From positions 3,636,217-3,700,216 of the forward strand of contig OX639992.1 of the NCBI GenBank assembly GCA_951828515.1: a DNA stretch of 64,000 nucleotides, read 5' to 3'. Origin of the DNA: an uncultured Poribacteria bacterium. Its GTDB lineage: Bacteria; Poribacteria; WGA-4E; WGA-3G. Under the pieces are notes generated by a model. It saw nothing but the letters and a program-made list of their open reading frames with translations, made no database searches and had not been told where the DNA came from. Shown here piece by piece: positions 31,030-37,034 of the stretch. The position numbers and the translations under genes are program-made. Each line of letters begins with the position of its first letter. Positions within the stretch are counted from its first letter, which is position 1.

Positions 31030-31878
31030 ATGGATACAAACACAATTCCCGAAGAACGGAATTTTGGACTGACGCCTGAAGAACGATCCTCTTGGGATGA
31101 GAACGGATACTTTATCCGTTACGACGTTTTCTCAAAAGAAGAAAACGACGTTTTAGCGCAAATCGCTGATGACATCACTCTCGGAAAACGCTCCTTCCCA
31201 GACTATCATATCTTTCAAAACGCTTTAGTCAGAGACGGTAAGATTAAAGCACAAGGTGTCCACGCGATGCACAATATCCAATATGTGAGTTGTAATTGTC
31301 CAGAATTCCTCGCACACACGCGCGATTCCCGGCTCACCGATCCCGTTGTTGACATACTCGGTCCAGATCTCCTCGGTCTTAACAACCTCTATATTTGGAA
31401 ACCGCCCAAAATTGGTATCGGTTTCCCGTGGCATCAAGATAAATGGTATTTTAACCATCAGTATAAAACAGGAACGACTGTCGCAACATGGGGCGCTATT
31501 GATGACGCAGATGAAGACAACGGATGTCTCCATGTTATCCCGGGTAGCCACAAGTATGGAGTTCGTGACCACGTTGAACTTGAAGGTTCACAACAAGGGG
31601 AGTTTAAACAGGCACAAGGGGCTTGTGATGAAGATGGTGTTGCGGTAGAAGTTCCTGCTGGGGCGGTCATCTGGTTTAATAGTCAAGTCCTCCATAAAAG
31701 CACGGATAACCACAGTGAGCGTTTCAGACGCGCAAACATCGCACATTATATCAGTGCCAAAGCAGAATGGACATGTCCCGAAGCTGTAAATAAAAAACGC
31801 CCTCCTATGTGGATTCGGGGGGAAACCTATCCCGGTATGGCGGATGAAGTTCAATGGGACGTAATATCAATTCTATAA
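31030..31878 (+). CDS. Phytanoyl-CoA dioxygenase (PhyH) family protein
   Basis: 282 aa; AGGAGAATGA precedes the ATG. A Fe(II)/2-oxoglutarate oxygenase: WHQDKWYF supplies the His-x-Asp metal ligands, VLHKSTDN the distal histidine and HSERFRRANIAHY the arginine that would bind 2-oxoglutarate. WDENGYFIRYDVFSKEEND is the usual N-terminal helix, and GCLHVIPGSHKYG is a family hallmark. The substrate is unknown; such genes are numerous in Poribacteria. A pectate lyase gene starts 31 bases after its stop. Confidence 0.93.
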   Translation: MDTNTIPEERNFGLTPEERSSWDENGYFIRYDVFSKEENDVLAQIADDITLGKRSFPDYHIFQNALVRDGKIKAQGVHAMHNIQYVSCNCPEFLAHTRDSRLTDPVVDILGPDLLGLNNLYIWKPPKIGIGFPWHQDKWYFNHQYKTGTTVATWGAIDDADEDNGCLHVIPGSHKYGVRDHVELEGSQQGEFKQAQGACDEDGVAVEVPAGAVIWFNSQVLHKSTDNHSERFRRANIAHYISAKAEWTCPEAVNKKRPPMWIRGETYPGMADEVQWDVISIL

Positions 31879-31909: not shown

Positions 31910-32956
31910 ATGAAACTACGACTGACTACCATTTATGTCTTGCTTCTTTTGTTTCTATCATCTTCCGATGCAACCGTTCCTTCCAAATACGCGAAGCAAT
32001 CCCTTGAATGGTTCCAGAGCGAGGAAGGTCGCCGTATTGCCGACAACGTCCTCACTTGGCAGACACCGCACGGCGGGTGGCCCAAGAATAGAGACACGGC
32101 ATCTGAGCCGTTTGATGGTAAAAGTGAGGATCTACACGCAACGTTCGACAACGGTGCGACCACTAACGAACTACGGTTTCTTGCCCGTGTGTTTCGTGCG
32201 ACAAACGAGCCGCGCTACCAACAAGCATTTCGCAAAGGTCTTTCTCATATCCTTGAAGCGCAATACCCAAATGGCGGGTGGCCCCAGTTTTATCCACTAA
32301 GCAAAGGTTACCATCGTCACATCACGTTCAATGACAATGTTATGGTCCGCATTCTCGAACTTCTCCGAGATGTCTCTGAATCTTCCGACTATCGGTTCCT
32401 GAAAATGGAGGACCGCACGAAGGCTGAAGCTGCTGTAACCAAGGGCATTGACTGCATCCTGCGCACGCAAATCGAGCAGAATGGCAAACGCACCGTCTGG
32501 TGCGCCCAGCATGACGAGAAAACGCTTGAGCCTGCGTGGGCACGTTCCTATGAGCCACCATCGTTCTCAGGTGCCGAAAGCGTCGGTGTCGTGCGATTCC
32601 TGATGTCAGTCGAAGAACCTACGCCAGGGATCATCGCCGCTGTCGAAGGATCCATCGAGTGGTTCAAGAGCGTCGCTATCCACGGTATGCGTCTTGACAA
32701 GTTCACCGACGCAGAGGGGCAGGACGATAAGCGGATCGTAGCGGATCCCGACGCGGACGCGCTCTGGGCGCGTTTCTACGAAATCGGCAGCAACCGTCCA
32801 ATCTTTCTCGACCGCGACTCGTTTGTCCGCGACTCGTTTTCCGAGATCGGGCAGGAACGCCGCACCGGATACGCCTACTACGGTGGCTGGGCCGCCAGAC
32901 TCCTCGCAGATGAGTACCCGCGGTGGAGAGAGAAGCACAAGTTCCCAAAGGAATGA
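31910..32956 (+). CDS. Pectate lyase, PL10-type
   Basis: 348 aa with a signal peptide (LTTIYVLLLLFLSSSDA). Family landmarks of PL10 pectate lyases: WQTPHGGWPKN, TFDNGATTNELRFLARVFRAT, AQYPNGGWPQFYP and ITFNDNVMVRILELL, with ENGKRTVWCAQHDEKTLEPAWARSYE-like residues for the catalytic arginine region. It cleaves polygalacturonate by beta-elimination outside the cytoplasm. AAGGG precedes the ATG. It sits between a PhyH oxygenase and a metallophosphoesterase with short gaps, so they may be cotranscribed. Confidence 0.93.
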   Translation: MKLRLTTIYVLLLLFLSSSDATVPSKYAKQSLEWFQSEEGRRIADNVLTWQTPHGGWPKNRDTASEPFDGKSEDLHATFDNGATTNELRFLARVFRATNEPRYQQAFRKGLSHILEAQYPNGGWPQFYPLSKGYHRHITFNDNVMVRILELLRDVSESSDYRFLKMEDRTKAEAAVTKGIDCILRTQIEQNGKRTVWCAQHDEKTLEPAWARSYEPPSFSGAESVGVVRFLMSVEEPTPGIIAAVEGSIEWFKSVAIHGMRLDKFTDAEGQDDKRIVADPDADALWARFYEIGSNRPIFLDRDSFVRDSFSEIGQERRTGYAYYGGWAARLLADEYPRWREKHKFPKE

Positions 32957-33003
32957 CCGATTATGGAATATACTTCACAATTCACGCACCCAAGGAGAAT
33001 GAC

Positions 33004-34761
33004 ATGCCCAAGTTCAATTGCTTACTGAAAATTATAGTGATTCCTGCTATATGTCTCGCCTTAATTGCCACAGTCGTCGCTCAAACACCCAACTTCCCTG
33101 AACGAATGCCTATCGTTGAACGTCCTTTCTCAGACGACCCCGACAAATTCACTTTCGCTATTATCGGTGATAAGACAGGCGGAGGTTACGACAAGTGGCC
33201 AGTGTTCGACCGCGCAATAGACGAAATCAATGTCCTGAAACCCGACTTTGCCATTATGGTGGGGGATTTGATACAAGGGTATACAAGTGACGCGGCGCAG
33301 GTCGAAACGGAATGGAAAGAGTTCTGGCAACATCAGTCGGATTTGATAATCCCATTTCTACCATTGCCCGGTAACCACGACATTACAAATCCGATGATGT
33401 ACGACTATTGGCAAAAACACCTCGGACGCACCTATTCGGCATTTACCTATAAAGACTGTCTGTTTCTCCTACTCAACACTGAGGAAAAACACAGTCTACC
33501 TGAAGGCAGTGAGGGCTGGATAGAAACATGGTTTGGCGATGCCCAAGTCGCATATATAACTGACGAGTTGGCGCTGCACAAGGATGTACGCCATACCTTC
33601 GTCATGCTACATAAACCGGCATGGCTACATGAAGATTCCGGCTGGTCTCAAATTGAAGAGCGACTCTCCGATCGAGCGTATACCGTGTTCGCTGGACACT
33701 ACCATAATTTGACCTTACACACACGTAATGACCGGCGATACTTCGTACTCGGCGCAACAGGTGGTGGCTTCACAACTCGCGAGGTACGGGAATACGGGGC
33801 CTTTGATCACTACAGTATCGTGACGGTAGATGGAAACGAAATTAATGTCGCGATCGTTGAACCCGGGCACATCTATCCTGCTGACCTATCGACTGCCGAA
33901 TTCAAAGCACAGCTCCGAGAGTTAGTTACAATTCAGTCCCACCTTCAGGTCAAGAGGGAACACGCCTCATCTGGTGGAAAACTTGAAATCGCGTTGAAAA
34001 ATAATCTGAAAAAGAAAGTCGATGTTGATCTCGTTTTCCATGAAAGTGAGAATTGGCAAACAGCGCCGCATCAGCTTGCGTTCACACTCAAACCCGGTCA
34101 AGAGGCAACAGGCAGTGTTGTGTTTTCCGCACTAACGGAGGCACTGCTGCCCTTACCGATCTATGACTATTCCGTTTTATACGGTGGTGAGCAACTGTAC
34201 CGGCGAACCGAAATGGTTTATCCAGTCGAACCCTCGGCGATGCAGCAGATCGCTGATTGGATGCTGCTTGGTACCTTCAGGCTTGATGTTCCAGAGGAAC
34301 TGGCGGCGTTGAATATCGTTCCGTCAGATTTCAGTGCTGACACTCCGCCCACATACGACAAATCTGCTAATGAAACCTACCAAGGGAAGCATGGAGACAT
34401 CCAGTGGCAAGAGCATCACGTTGATTCGGGATCCGTTAACTTGGATGGGATATTCAATAAACCTGAGTGGGCATCCGCTTACGGCGTGACCCACATCAAG
34501 AGTCCTGACGCACGCAAGGTTTTTGCTGAAATTCGCTGGGGAAGTAACCTCGGCAGACTTTTCGTTAACGGTGTCGAGTTAGCGACCGCAGCGAGACCTG
34601 GAGAGCATCTGTTTTACGGTAGGGTCTATGTTGAATTACCACTAAAAGTTGGATGGAATACCATAACTGTCCATTCAGGGGACTACACAGGTGGATGGAG
34701 TTACCAGATGGCGGTTGACAACACGAAAAACGCCCTCCAATTCAGTGCCACCCCAGATTAA
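33004..34761 (+). CDS. Exported metallophosphoesterase with C-terminal beta domain
   Basis: 585 aa from the ATG at 33004 (AAGGAG 8 bases upstream); a longer frame from 32923 overlaps the pectate lyase gene. Signal peptide 1-26 ends near TVVAQ. The calcineurin-like phosphoesterase domain spans about 45-290: FAIIGDKTGG, MVGDLIQG, PLPGNHDITN, FVMLHKPAW and VFAGHYHN give the dinuclear metal ligands. The C-terminal half resembles a carrier or sugar-binding beta-sandwich (FAEIRWGSNLGRLFVNGVEL, GWNTITVHSGDYTGGWSYQM). A phosphodiesterase or phosphatase acting on an extracellular phosphorylated compound is likely. Confidence 0.9.
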   Translation: MPKFNCLLKIIVIPAICLALIATVVAQTPNFPERMPIVERPFSDDPDKFTFAIIGDKTGGGYDKWPVFDRAIDEINVLKPDFAIMVGDLIQGYTSDAAQVETEWKEFWQHQSDLIIPFLPLPGNHDITNPMMYDYWQKHLGRTYSAFTYKDCLFLLLNTEEKHSLPEGSEGWIETWFGDAQVAYITDELALHKDVRHTFVMLHKPAWLHEDSGWSQIEERLSDRAYTVFAGHYHNLTLHTRNDRRYFVLGATGGGFTTREVREYGAFDHYSIVTVDGNEINVAIVEPGHIYPADLSTAEFKAQLRELVTIQSHLQVKREHASSGGKLEIALKNNLKKKVDVDLVFHESENWQTAPHQLAFTLKPGQEATGSVVFSALTEALLPLPIYDYSVLYGGEQLYRRTEMVYPVEPSAMQQIADWMLLGTFRLDVPEELAALNIVPSDFSADTPPTYDKSANETYQGKHGDIQWQEHHVDSGSVNLDGIFNKPEWASAYGVTHIKSPDARKVFAEIRWGSNLGRLFVNGVELATAARPGEHLFYGRVYVELPLKVGWNTITVHSGDYTGGWSYQMAVDNTKNALQFSATPD

Positions 34762-34853: not shown

Positions 34854-34882
34854 TTGACAAAAGATTTCCGCTGCGCTATACT
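34854..34882 (+). promoter_or_regulatory. Near-consensus promoter of the PhyH-HD-hydrolase operon
   Basis: TTGACA (34854-34859), 17-base spacer, TATACT (34877-34882), 36 bases before the ATG at 34918; AAGGAAGAGGG is the ribosome binding site. Confidence 0.8.
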
Positions 34883-34917: not shown

Positions 34918-35703
34918 ATGTCTTACCTTAATTCCGAACGCCACCGAGATTGGAAAACCAACGGCTACTTGAAAATCCCCGGCTTTTTCTCCGCCGAAGA
35001 GGTGAACGATCTACAGGCGTGGGTCTCTGACATCTCGGGTTGGGAACCGACACCGGATAAGTGGATGCACCATTATGAATCCACGCCAGCTGGACCACGA
35101 CTCTCTCGCTCAGAAAATTTCGTGCCCTACCACACCGATATGGAAACCACCGTGACAGATGGCAAAGTATTAGATGTTGTCTCCGGTGTGATGGAAGAAC
35201 CGGCAGTTCTCTACAAAGAGAAAATCAACTACAAATATCCTGGCGGCGGTGGTTACGCGGCACATCAGGACGCACCCGCTTATGAATTCATCAAATTCCA
35301 TATCACCTGTTTAATTTCGGTTGATTCAGCGACTCCTGAAAGTGGATGTCTCTATTTCGCGCCCGGTAGGCACAACGAAGGATTCATCGCGTTGGACGAA
35401 AAGGGATGTGTCGCCCCCGAAACCGCTTCAGCGATGGAGTGGGTCGCTGTACCTACAGATCCGGGTGACATTCTTCTCTTCGGCTCTTACATCCCACACA
35501 AGAGTCCGAGCAACCGTTCAGATCGACCAAGACGCATTATCTATCTCACTTACAATGCCAGTTCCGAAGGCGATTGGCGCGAGCAGTATTATGAAGACAA
35601 GCGGCAGGCTTTCTCGCAATACGCAACGGACGGCTCAAACCGAGATAAACAAATTAGTAAAATCGCACATTTTCAAGGGAAATCAGTGAACCATGACTTT
35701 TGA
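34918..35703 (+). CDS. PhyH-family 2-oxoglutarate oxygenase, PhnY-like by context
   Basis: 261 aa. HRDWKTNGYLKIPGFFSAEEV opens the fold; YAAHQDAPAYEF gives the His-x-Asp ligands, YIPHKSPSNRS the distal histidine and RPRRIIYLTYNA the 2-oxoglutarate-binding arginine. GCLYFAPGRHNEG is the family hallmark. Its last 11 bases overlap the following HD-domain oxygenase gene. In known systems a PhyH-type enzyme next to a PhnZ-type HD oxygenase hydroxylates a phosphonate at the alpha carbon (PhnY, TmpA), and the HD enzyme then cleaves the C-P bond. That role here is inference from context. Confidence 0.9.
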   Translation: MSYLNSERHRDWKTNGYLKIPGFFSAEEVNDLQAWVSDISGWEPTPDKWMHHYESTPAGPRLSRSENFVPYHTDMETTVTDGKVLDVVSGVMEEPAVLYKEKINYKYPGGGGYAAHQDAPAYEFIKFHITCLISVDSATPESGCLYFAPGRHNEGFIALDEKGCVAPETASAMEWVAVPTDPGDILLFGSYIPHKSPSNRSDRPRRIIYLTYNASSEGDWREQYYEDKRQAFSQYATDGSNRDKQISKIAHFQGKSVNHDF

Positions 35704-36325
35704 TAGAAAATCTCAGCTTTCAAGCGATATTGAAAAGTATATTGATCCAAGTCTCGCCCAAAAAATGAAAGACGGAACAGCAGAGCAAAAGGTTGCCATA
35801 CTGTTCAGTTATATGGAAAAACGTGGACAGTCGTTCTACGATGAAGTTGTGACGCAACTGGAGCATGCCCTCCAATGTGCCGCCCTCGCGCAACAGAACG
35901 GCGCAAGTGCCACGCTGATTACGGGCGCATTACTCCACGACGTCGGACATATCATCTTAGATGAACACAATGCCGATAAAGCGTTCCTGGATACAGACCT
36001 GACGCACGAAGAGGTCGGCGCGCAGTATATGGAACCGTTTTTCCCAGATGCAGTTACGACACCGATCCGGCTGCATGTTCCCGCAAAAAGGTATCTCTGT
36101 ACAACCGATACCTCTTATCATGACGGGCTATCTGAGGCATCGAAAAAGAGTTTCATCGTTCAGGGAGGCGTCATGTCAGACGAGGAGCGGGAGGCGTTTG
36201 AACAGATTCCGCATTTCCAAGAGGGGGTCACTCTACGGCGGTGGGACGATCTCGCAAAAGTGAAAGGACTGGAGACTGCTGAATTAGAAACCTATCGAGA
36301 CATCGTGCAGCAGTGCTTAATATAG
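35693..36325 (+). CDS. HD-domain oxygenase, PhnZ/TmpB-like
   Basis: 210 aa; AAGGGA inside the preceding gene serves as ribosome binding site. QLEHALQCAALAQQNGASATLITGALLHDVGHI contains the first metal histidine and the HD pair; DLTHEEVGAQYM and IRLHVPAKRYL supply further histidines, and RRWDDLAKV a late aspartate. This ligand set matches the mixed-valence diiron HD oxygenases of the PhnZ group rather than HD phosphohydrolases. SFYDEVVTQLEH retains a glutamate where PhnZ has a substrate-gating residue; the paired tyrosine may be shifted by one. It probably oxidises the product of the preceding PhyH enzyme. Confidence 0.88.
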   Translation: MTFDRKSQLSSDIEKYIDPSLAQKMKDGTAEQKVAILFSYMEKRGQSFYDEVVTQLEHALQCAALAQQNGASATLITGALLHDVGHIILDEHNADKAFLDTDLTHEEVGAQYMEPFFPDAVTTPIRLHVPAKRYLCTTDTSYHDGLSEASKKSFIVQGGVMSDEEREAFEQIPHFQEGVTLRRWDDLAKVKGLETAELETYRDIVQQCLI

Positions 36326-36356
36326 AATTCAAGAAGAAAGAAAACTTGAGGTAAAA

Positions 36357-37034
36357 ATGAACTACGAAGCAATCGAATCAAAATTCATCGCAACACCAGA
36401 AAAAGGCGAAGTCTCCTCAATACTGATACGTCCAGACGACGCGAAGTGGTTGTTGGTGCTCGGACACGGTGCCAGTACGACTATGAGACATTCAACGCTT
36501 CAAATGATCGCTGAACGGTTAGCAGATATCGGCATCGCCACATTCCGGTATCAGTTCCCTTACATGGAACGTGGTGGGGGTGGACGCGAATCGCAAGCGG
36601 TGGCTCTGGCAACCGTGCGATCTGCTGTTGCAGCCGCACACGAGGCTGCCGGTGATGTATCAATTCTCGTTGGAGGGCATTCCTATAGCGGACGTATGTC
36701 TTCGCTCACAGCAGCAGAAGCACCGATCGAACACGTCCAAGGTCTCGTATTCTTCGCGTTCCCACTGCATCCTTCTGGAAAAGAGGGAACAGAACGTGCC
36801 GAGCACCTTGATGACGTTACTGTGCCAATGCTATTTTTATCTGGCACCCGTGATAAGTTGGCGGTACTTGACCTGTTGGGACCGGTCTGTGAGAAACTCG
36901 GCGACAAGGCGACTTTGCATCTCTTGGACACAGCAGATCACGGGTTCAAAGTGCTGAAACGCCGTAAAACCGAAGAAGATGTTTTCGTAGAGATGGCGCG
37001 GGTACTCAGTGAATGGATTGAAACACTGGATTAA
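36357..37034 (+). CDS. Alpha/beta-hydrolase (KANL3/Tex30-like or dienelactone hydrolase type)
   Basis: 225 aa; TGAGGTAAAA precedes the ATG, 31 bases after the HD gene. LLVLGHGAS forms the oxyanion-hole strand, GGHSYSGRM the nucleophile elbow with the catalytic serine, FLSGTRDKLA the aspartate and DTADHGFKV the histidine. No signal peptide. The lid seen in many esterases is short. It shares the operon with the two oxygenases and could hydrolyse an ester or release a product, but the substrate is not readable. Confidence 0.88.
   Translation: MNYEAIESKFIATPEKGEVSSILIRPDDAKWLLVLGHGASTTMRHSTLQMIAERLADIGIATFRYQFPYMERGGGGRESQAVALATVRSAVAAAHEAAGDVSILVGGHSYSGRMSSLTAAEAPIEHVQGLVFFAFPLHPSGKEGTERAEHLDDVTVPMLFLSGTRDKLAVLDLLGPVCEKLGDKATLHLLDTADHGFKVLKRRKTEEDVFVEMARVLSEWIETLD

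What the first reader, a model, noticed from the sequence alone, without database searches (positions are those of the whole stretch)
34918..37034. PhyH oxygenase overlapping a PhnZ-like HD oxygenase, plus a hydrolase
The 2-oxoglutarate oxygenase gene overlaps by 11 bases an HD protein whose ligand pattern (QLEHALQ, LLHDVGH, THEE, RLHVP, WDD) matches diiron oxygenases. In PhnY/PhnZ and TmpA/TmpB such a pair breaks a C-P bond in two oxidations. A third gene, an alpha/beta hydrolase, follows in the same operon behind one near-consensus promoter. The substrate may be a phosphonate or a new compound class.
Basis: partly seen in the sequence, partly recalled or inferred. Interest (0 to 1): 0.6.

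Follow-up and report, generated by a model that had tools for sequence, protein, structure and literature searches.

The report
Poribacterial oxygenase pair splitting phosphonates
Two overlapping genes in a sponge-symbiont bacterium encode a pair of iron enzymes that most likely cut the tough carbon-phosphorus bond of methylphosphonate, giving phosphate and formate instead of methane; the pair belongs to a known kind of pathway, already noticed in these bacteria in 2014 but then assigned to another substrate.

Summary
A PhyH-type 2-oxoglutarate oxygenase (34918-35703) overlaps by 11 bp an HD protein (35693-36325) behind a conserved TTGACA-17-TATACT promoter, in a Candidatus Poribacteria genome. 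The HD protein is a PhnZ-type diiron oxygenase, not a phosphohydrolase: all six iron ligands are kept, its model matches PhnZ and TmpB (Z about 26; next MIOX 11), and it joins the clade of Gimesia-type PhnZ1 (99/98 support). TmpB grouping is rejected (p 7e-6), PhnZ grouping weakly (p 0.033). The PhyH protein joins Gimesia-type PhnY* (98/99). The short gate loop (GQSFYDE) matches that clade; PhnZ and TmpB have YxxE. Best reading: methylphosphonate to hydroxymethylphosphonate to formate plus phosphate. The substrate is inferred; both proteins fall below the curated equivalog cut-offs. The pair is near-universal in this genus (37 of 38 genomes) and was reported in two Poribacteria in 2014 as a 2-aminoethylphosphonate pathway; my evidence moves the likely substrate. 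The alpha/beta hydrolase is only loosely linked. A single-copy metallophosphoesterase lies next to the pair in 30 of 40 genomes holding both, which suggests, but does not show, that the phosphonate arrives as an ester.

The parts
34854..34882 (+). sigma-70-like promoter TTGACA-17-TATACT
   Evidence: 11 of 12 matches; conserved position and hexamers in most relatives compared, with diverged surroundings
34918..35703 (+). PhnY*-like Fe(II)/2-oxoglutarate oxygenase (PhyH family); ligands H116, D118, H194, 2OG arginine R205 or R206
   Evidence: Pfam PhyH; best NCBIfam hit NF052437 methylphosphonate hydroxylase 359.8 bits, below its cut-off of 500; 51-53% identical to Gimesia-type PhnY*, clade 98/99; H116, D118, H194, R205 and R206 invariant in 12 sequences
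35693..36325 (+). PhnZ1-like HD diiron oxygenase; ligands H58, H82, D83, H105, H128, D185
   Evidence: NCBIfam NF052439 262 bits (cut-off 300); PDB PhnZ/TmpB; fold; tree; ligands in all 47 rows
35831..35851 (+). substrate-gate loop SFYDEVV (residues 47-53), Y49-x-E51
   Evidence: same short YxE loop in Gimesia-type PhnZ1, planctomycete and actinobacterial PhyH partners; YxxE in PhnZ and TmpB
35693..35703 (+). 11-bp gene overlap (translational coupling likely)
   Evidence: overlap of -8, -11 or -17 bp in 46 of 51 relatives
36357..37034 (+). alpha/beta hydrolase (Abhydrolase_11), loosely linked neighbour
   Evidence: 16-1335 bp downstream in 40 of 51 loci
32923..34761 (+). calcineurin-like metallophosphoesterase with an N-terminal signal-like segment; syntenic upstream neighbour, own transcript likely
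   Evidence: PF00149; single copy in the genome; next to the pair in 30 of 40 genomes holding both

Best explanation
The overlapping genes encode a two-enzyme oxidative phosphonate pathway of the PhnY*/PhnZ1 type. Step 1 (inferred): the PhyH enzyme uses Fe(II), 2-oxoglutarate and O2 to hydroxylate the carbon next to phosphorus, most likely methylphosphonate to hydroxymethylphosphonate. Step 2 (inferred): the HD enzyme binds the hydroxyphosphonate on a mixed-valent diiron centre, which displaces the gate tyrosine (Y49), lets O2 bind, and cleaves the C-P bond to formate and phosphate. Shown here: gene order and overlap, conserved promoter, intact metal ligands and conserved columns that match the PhnZ phosphonate contacts, fold, and phylogenetic place of both proteins. 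Not shown: activity and substrate.
For: Best family hits are the methylphosphonate hydroxylase and hydroxymethylphosphonate dioxygenase models. Eight Planctomycetia genomes exceed the curated PhnY* cut-off and carry the same gene pair; window proteins are 51-53% (PhyH) and 52-55% (HD) identical to theirs. Both trees place the window with them: HD clade 99/98, PhyH clade 98/99. AU test rejects grouping with TmpB (p 7e-6) and weakly with PhnZ (p 0.033). Iron ligands are invariant in 47 of 47 rows and the gate loop matches Gimesia. Model: PhnZ/TmpB Z 24-26, MIOX 10-11, others 9.3 or below. A related pair lies inside a C-P lyase cluster with a PhnD (L099). The genome shows no PhnJ and no PhnX above cut-off. 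Literature: PMC10574752 and PMC6581173 describe Gimesia and Prochlorococcus methylphosphonate oxidation to formate.
Against: Neither protein reaches the equivalog cut-off (359.8 vs 500; 262 vs 300), and TIGR03276 is missed narrowly (209.4 vs 214.6). The window PhyH is nearer to planctomycete pairs of untested substrate (57-60%) than to Gimesia. No dedicated phosphonate transporter: the one PF12974 hit is a TAXI/NMT1-type receptor, and the DUF5690 protein next to the Gimesia pair is absent here. No AEP-type PhnY sequence was available for the PhyH tree. Published GmPhnZ also accepts (R)-hydroxy-AEP (PMC10574752).
Confidence: 0.68

Rival explanations
1. Same chemistry, different substrate: the pair oxidises 2-aminoethylphosphonate (AEP) to glycine and phosphate, as proposed for Poribacteria in 2014.
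For: Kamke et al. 2014 (PMC3909097) reported adjacent phnY and phnZ homologues in two Poribacteria, 40% identical to the AEP enzyme; AEP is common in sponge lipids according to that paper; published GmPhnZ accepts hydroxy-AEP.
Against: Closer to Gimesia PhnY* (51-53%), described as specific for methylphosphonate, than the 40% reported to AEP-type PhnY. HD clade excludes PhnZ (AU p 0.033); gate loop is YxE, not YxxE.
Confidence: 0.15
2. Same chemistry on another or broader phosphonate (hydroxyethyl-, ethyl- or a sponge-specific phosphonate), with the metallophosphoesterase and/or the hydrolase trimming an ester first.
For: Sequence below equivalog cut-offs; phosphoesterase neighbour in 30 of 40 genomes; marine polysaccharides carry phosphonate esters (PMC5649143).
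Against: The stretch around the PhyH iron site is nearly identical to Gimesia-type PhnY* (KEKINYKYPGGGGYAAHQDAPAYEFI), which argues against a changed pocket; neighbours vary between families.
Confidence: 0.12
3. The HD protein is an ordinary HD phosphohydrolase and the PhyH gene an unrelated neighbour.
For: HD domain hit alone is generic; PhyH genes are very abundant in this genome (42 hits).
Against: Pair adjacent in 31 of 31 phylum loci first examined and across Planctomycetes; phosphohydrolase structures match far worse than PhnZ; this PhyH scores 359 bits against 69 for the next copy in the genome.
Confidence: 0.02

Closest known systems
PhnY*/PhnZ1 of Gimesia maris (methylphosphonate to formate and phosphate)
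   Same: PhyH plus HD order, short overlap, both proteins in one well-supported clade, gate loop GQS(F/Y)YDE, all ligands
   Different: 51-55% identity; below NCBIfam equivalog cut-offs; no DUF5690 neighbour.
PhnY/PhnZ of HF130_AEPn_1 (2-aminoethylphosphonate)
   Same: Same two-step chemistry and fold (PDB 4MLM); same ligands
   Different: Separate HD clade, YxxE gate loop, 38% identity
TmpA/TmpB (2-trimethylaminoethylphosphonate)
   Same: HD oxygenase with the same ligands and fold (6NPA)
   Different: Partner is a gamma-butyrobetaine-hydroxylase-like oxygenase (assigned from my own knowledge), not PhyH; TmpB grouping rejected
Poribacterial phyH/HD pair of Kamke et al. 2014 (PMC3909097)
   Same: Very probably the same genes in two single-cell genomes; a further predicted hydrolase downstream is also mentioned
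   Different: Assigned there to AEP at 40% identity, before the methylphosphonate pair was known
PhnY/PhnZ of Prochlorococcus MIT9301 (PMC6581173)
   Same: PhnY/PhnZ oxidation of methyl- and hydroxymethylphosphonate to formate, no growth on AEP
   Different: Sequences not available here to compare

Membership tests
HD-domain diiron oxygenases (PhnZ/TmpB group) | H...HD...H...H...D ligand set | tested here: met
   H58, H82, D83, H105, H128, D185 aligned with PhnZ and TmpB and invariant in 47 rows
HD-domain diiron oxygenases (PhnZ/TmpB group) | groups by sequence and fold with PhnZ/TmpB and not with phosphohydrolases | tested here: met
   Foldseek E 1e-10 to 1e-12 to PhnZ/TmpB, others at 0.15 or worse; Z 24-26 against 11 (MIOX) and about 8 or less for phosphohydrolases
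HD-domain diiron oxygenases (PhnZ/TmpB group) | mobile Tyr...Glu gate loop | tested here: met
   Y49 and E51 invariant; loop one residue shorter than in PhnZ/TmpB; mobility itself not tested
HD-domain diiron oxygenases (PhnZ/TmpB group) | mixed-valent Fe(II)/Fe(III) cofactor and O2-dependent C-P cleavage | not testable with these tools
   needs purified protein
Gimesia-type methylphosphonate pathway (PhnY*/PhnZ1) | score above the curated NCBIfam equivalog cut-offs | tested here: not met
   359.8 vs 500 and 262 vs 300 bits; only 8 of 398 Planctomycetia genomes pass the PhnY* cut-off
Gimesia-type methylphosphonate pathway (PhnY*/PhnZ1) | both proteins in the clade of PhnY* and PhnZ1 | tested here: met
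   98/99, 99/98
Gimesia-type methylphosphonate pathway (PhnY*/PhnZ1) | oxidises methylphosphonate and hydroxymethylphosphonate | not testable with these tools
   enzyme assay needed
AEP pathway PhnY/PhnZ | HD protein in the PhnZ clade with YxxE loop | tested here: not met
   separate clade, AU p 0.033, YxE loop
TmpA/TmpB | BBOX-like partner and TmpB clade | tested here: not met
   partner is PhyH; AU p 7e-6
HD phosphohydrolases | closest solved structures are phosphohydrolases | tested here: not met

The most novel reading that the evidence does not exclude
The signal-peptide-bearing metallophosphoesterase and the oxygenase pair form a phosphonate-ester utilisation module: the phosphoesterase frees methylphosphonate from polysaccharide or lipid esters filtered or made by the sponge, and the pair turns it into phosphate and formate, making Poribacteria a methane-free methylphosphonate sink in sponges.
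Probability: 0.15. Interest if true: 0.55.

Novelty: new member of a known kind. Interest (0 to 1): 0.33.

Why it matters
If the substrate is methylphosphonate, one of the commonest sponge symbionts takes this compound to formate and phosphate, whereas a published study of methane in sponges considered only C-P lyase, which releases methane (PMC9999580). The pair is near-universal in the genus, so it is a core trait, and the 2014 annotation as an AEP pathway should be rechecked. The short gate loop offers a sequence marker to test.

Tried and rejected
HD phosphohydrolase reading: rejected by fold and tree. TmpB-type reading: rejected. Phosphonate ABC transporter in this genome: the only PF12974 hit (33 bits) turned out to be a TAXI/NMT1-type receptor. 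C-P lyase: no PhnJ. Phosphonate biosynthesis: PEP mutase hits only below cut-off. PhnX: only weak hits of the kind seen in all controls. DUF5690, the neighbour of the pair in Gimesia-like genomes: absent in this genome and its whole family. Viral contigs: no relative found by the single-protein query. An AEP-type PhnY for the PhyH tree was sought through PhnZ-like plasmid genes, but those have no PhyH neighbour. The primary PhnZ and TmpA/B structure papers were not held, so roles of single residues beyond the reviews rest on my own knowledge.

Full report
Setting. The window lies in a single-contig 5.85 Mb genome whose nearest named relatives are Candidatus Poribacteria; the best named locus has a 98% identical HD protein. 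The three genes and the 11-bp overlap are as described. The promoter TTGACA-17-TATACT at 34854-34882 is conserved in most relatives compared while the DNA around it has diverged, so it is very likely real.

What the two proteins are. Pfam gives only PhyH and HD. NCBIfam ranks the Gimesia methylphosphonate hydroxylase model first for the PhyH protein (359.8 bits, cut-off 500) and the hydroxymethylphosphonate dioxygenase model first for the HD protein (262 bits, cut-off 300), ahead of TIGR03276 (209.4, cut-off 214.6) and TmpB (159). Both lie below the equivalog cut-offs, so I do not file them as proven equivalogs. Sequence search of solved structures finds only TmpB and PhnZ for the HD protein at meaningful E-values.

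Tests of the HD protein. An alignment of 47 proteins with PhnZ (4MLM) and TmpB (6NPA) shows the ligand columns H58, H82, D83, H105, H128, D185 and the columns K132, S147, S150, Q157, R182 unchanged in every row; the role of the latter as phosphonate contacts is from my own knowledge of PhnZ. An AlphaFold2 model (mean pLDDT 89.4) matches PhnZ and TmpB with Z 24-26 and rmsd 1.6-2.3, then myo-inositol oxygenase at 11.4 and 10.5; a putative phosphohydrolase reaches 8.2 (Foldseek). The tree puts the window HD with Gimesia-type PhnZ1 and planctomycete relatives in a clade with 99/98 support, apart from the TmpB clade (99/98) and the PhnZ clade (100/100). Forcing the poribacterial rows with TmpB is rejected (p 7e-6) and with PhnZ weakly (p 0.033).

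The gate loop. PhnZ and TmpB carry a YxxE loop whose tyrosine plugs the iron until substrate arrives (PMC8177086). The window has Y49-D-E51, one residue shorter. This short form occurs in the Gimesia-type, planctomycete, poribacterial and actinobacterial HD proteins that I examined with a PhyH partner, and in the orphan PhnZ1-like ones; PhnZ, the Rhodobacteraceae TmpB group and the HD proteins beside PhnX, PhnW or FAD oxidoreductases have YxxE. Two further rows (L092, L093) are also short, so the loop is a marker, not a proof.

Tests of the PhyH protein. The ligands H116, D118, H194 and arginines 205 and 206 are invariant in 12 orthologues. The window PhyH is 51-53% identical to them, in a clade of 98/99 support, while the seven best-scoring other PhyH copies of its own genome are 20-27% identical. 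The genome has 42 PhyH hits; this one scores 359 bits, the next 69. The core KEKINYKYPGGGGYAAHQDAPAYEFI is shared with the Gimesia-type proteins almost letter by letter.

Distribution. A PhnZ1-type HD gene is found in 56 of 85 genomes of the phylum (59 with more distant paralogues) and in 37 of 38 of the genus. It is adjacent to the PhyH gene in 31 of 31 loci first examined. Outside the phylum, pairs occur in Planctomycetes (PhyH and HD identities 62 and 54%, 58 and 53%) and at about 41-51% in other bacteria; one actinobacterial pair stands in a C-P lyase cluster with a PhnD (gene names there are my reading of the sequences), which ties this kind of pair to phosphonates. Some relatives (Latescibacterota, Gemmatimonadota, a Mariniblastus, one deep-branching Poribacterium) have the HD gene with no PhnY*-like gene in the genome searched.

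Neighbours. The alpha/beta hydrolase follows in 40 of 51 loci at 16-1335 bp, so a pathway role is unproven. The upstream gene 32923-34761, a calcineurin-like phosphoesterase with a signal-like N-terminus, is single-copy in the genome, and in 30 of 40 genomes that hold both it lies within about 0.4-1.6 kb of the HD gene, across three families. It also occurs in genomes without the pair. Marine polysaccharides carry phosphonate esters (PMC5649143), so a role in freeing the substrate is a fair hypothesis. A different metallophosphoesterase also lies divergently beside the HD gene in the Latescibacterota and Gemmatimonadota loci, which may be one event.

What is known. Four versions of the two-step oxidative route are described, including Gimesia methylphosphonate to formate (PMC10574752); Prochlorococcus MIT9301 grows on methyl- and hydroxymethylphosphonate and not on AEP (PMC6581173). 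Kamke et al. 2014 (PMC3909097) reported adjacent phyH and HD genes in two Poribacteria, 40% identical to the AEP enzyme, and proposed AEP use. The pair is therefore not a new discovery in the phylum; what is added here is its clade, its conservation, its promoter, and a likelier substrate.

Conclusion. That the pair is a PhnY*/PhnZ-type C-P cleaving system is close to certain for a sequence-based claim (about 0.95). That methylphosphonate is the main substrate is likely (about 0.68). The genome shows no PhnJ, no PhnX above cut-off and no recognised PhnD; how the substrate enters is unknown.

Noticed in passing
L081:968-1561, L082:6001-6594, L083:5992-6582: PhnZ1-type HD genes without any PhnY*-like gene in the genome searched; they may use hydroxymethylphosphonate directly or another hydroxylase.
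   Followed up: partly
L054, L055-L059 (e.g. L054:7470-8117): In one poribacterial genus a second HD oxygenase (gate loop YEGGE) sits in a conserved cluster with a PhyH oxygenase, a Gfo/Idh/MocA oxidoreductase, a histidine kinase, a gamma-glutamyl cyclotransferase and an M42 peptidase; its substrate is unknown and it may be a new type.
   Followed up: partly
L156:9303-10658, L158:2699-3982, L084:3542-4930: A DUF5690 membrane protein (Pfam-confirmed in L156) lies beside PhnY*/PhnZ1 in Gimesia-type genomes, with similar-looking proteins near two other planctomycete pairs; a candidate phosphonate transporter.
   Followed up: partly
window 31030-31878 and 31910-32956: A second PhyH oxygenase next to a pectic acid lyase; relatives carry two to four PhyH copies in tandem there. 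Part of the large PhyH expansion of Poribacteria.
   Followed up: no
L165:4983-5543: An HD oxygenase gene inside a C-P lyase operon of a Nostoc plasmid, next to PhnJ.
   Followed up: no
L106, L108: HD oxygenases next to PhnX-, PhnW- or FAD-oxidoreductase-like genes in Planctomycetes, probably AEP-derived pathways.
   Followed up: no
L163, L164: Rhodococcus and Dietzia plasmids share a cassette of PhyH, HD, a second 2OG oxygenase, a methionine-synthase-like protein and a YaaH transporter; possibly a phosphonate pathway with a further substrate.
   Followed up: no
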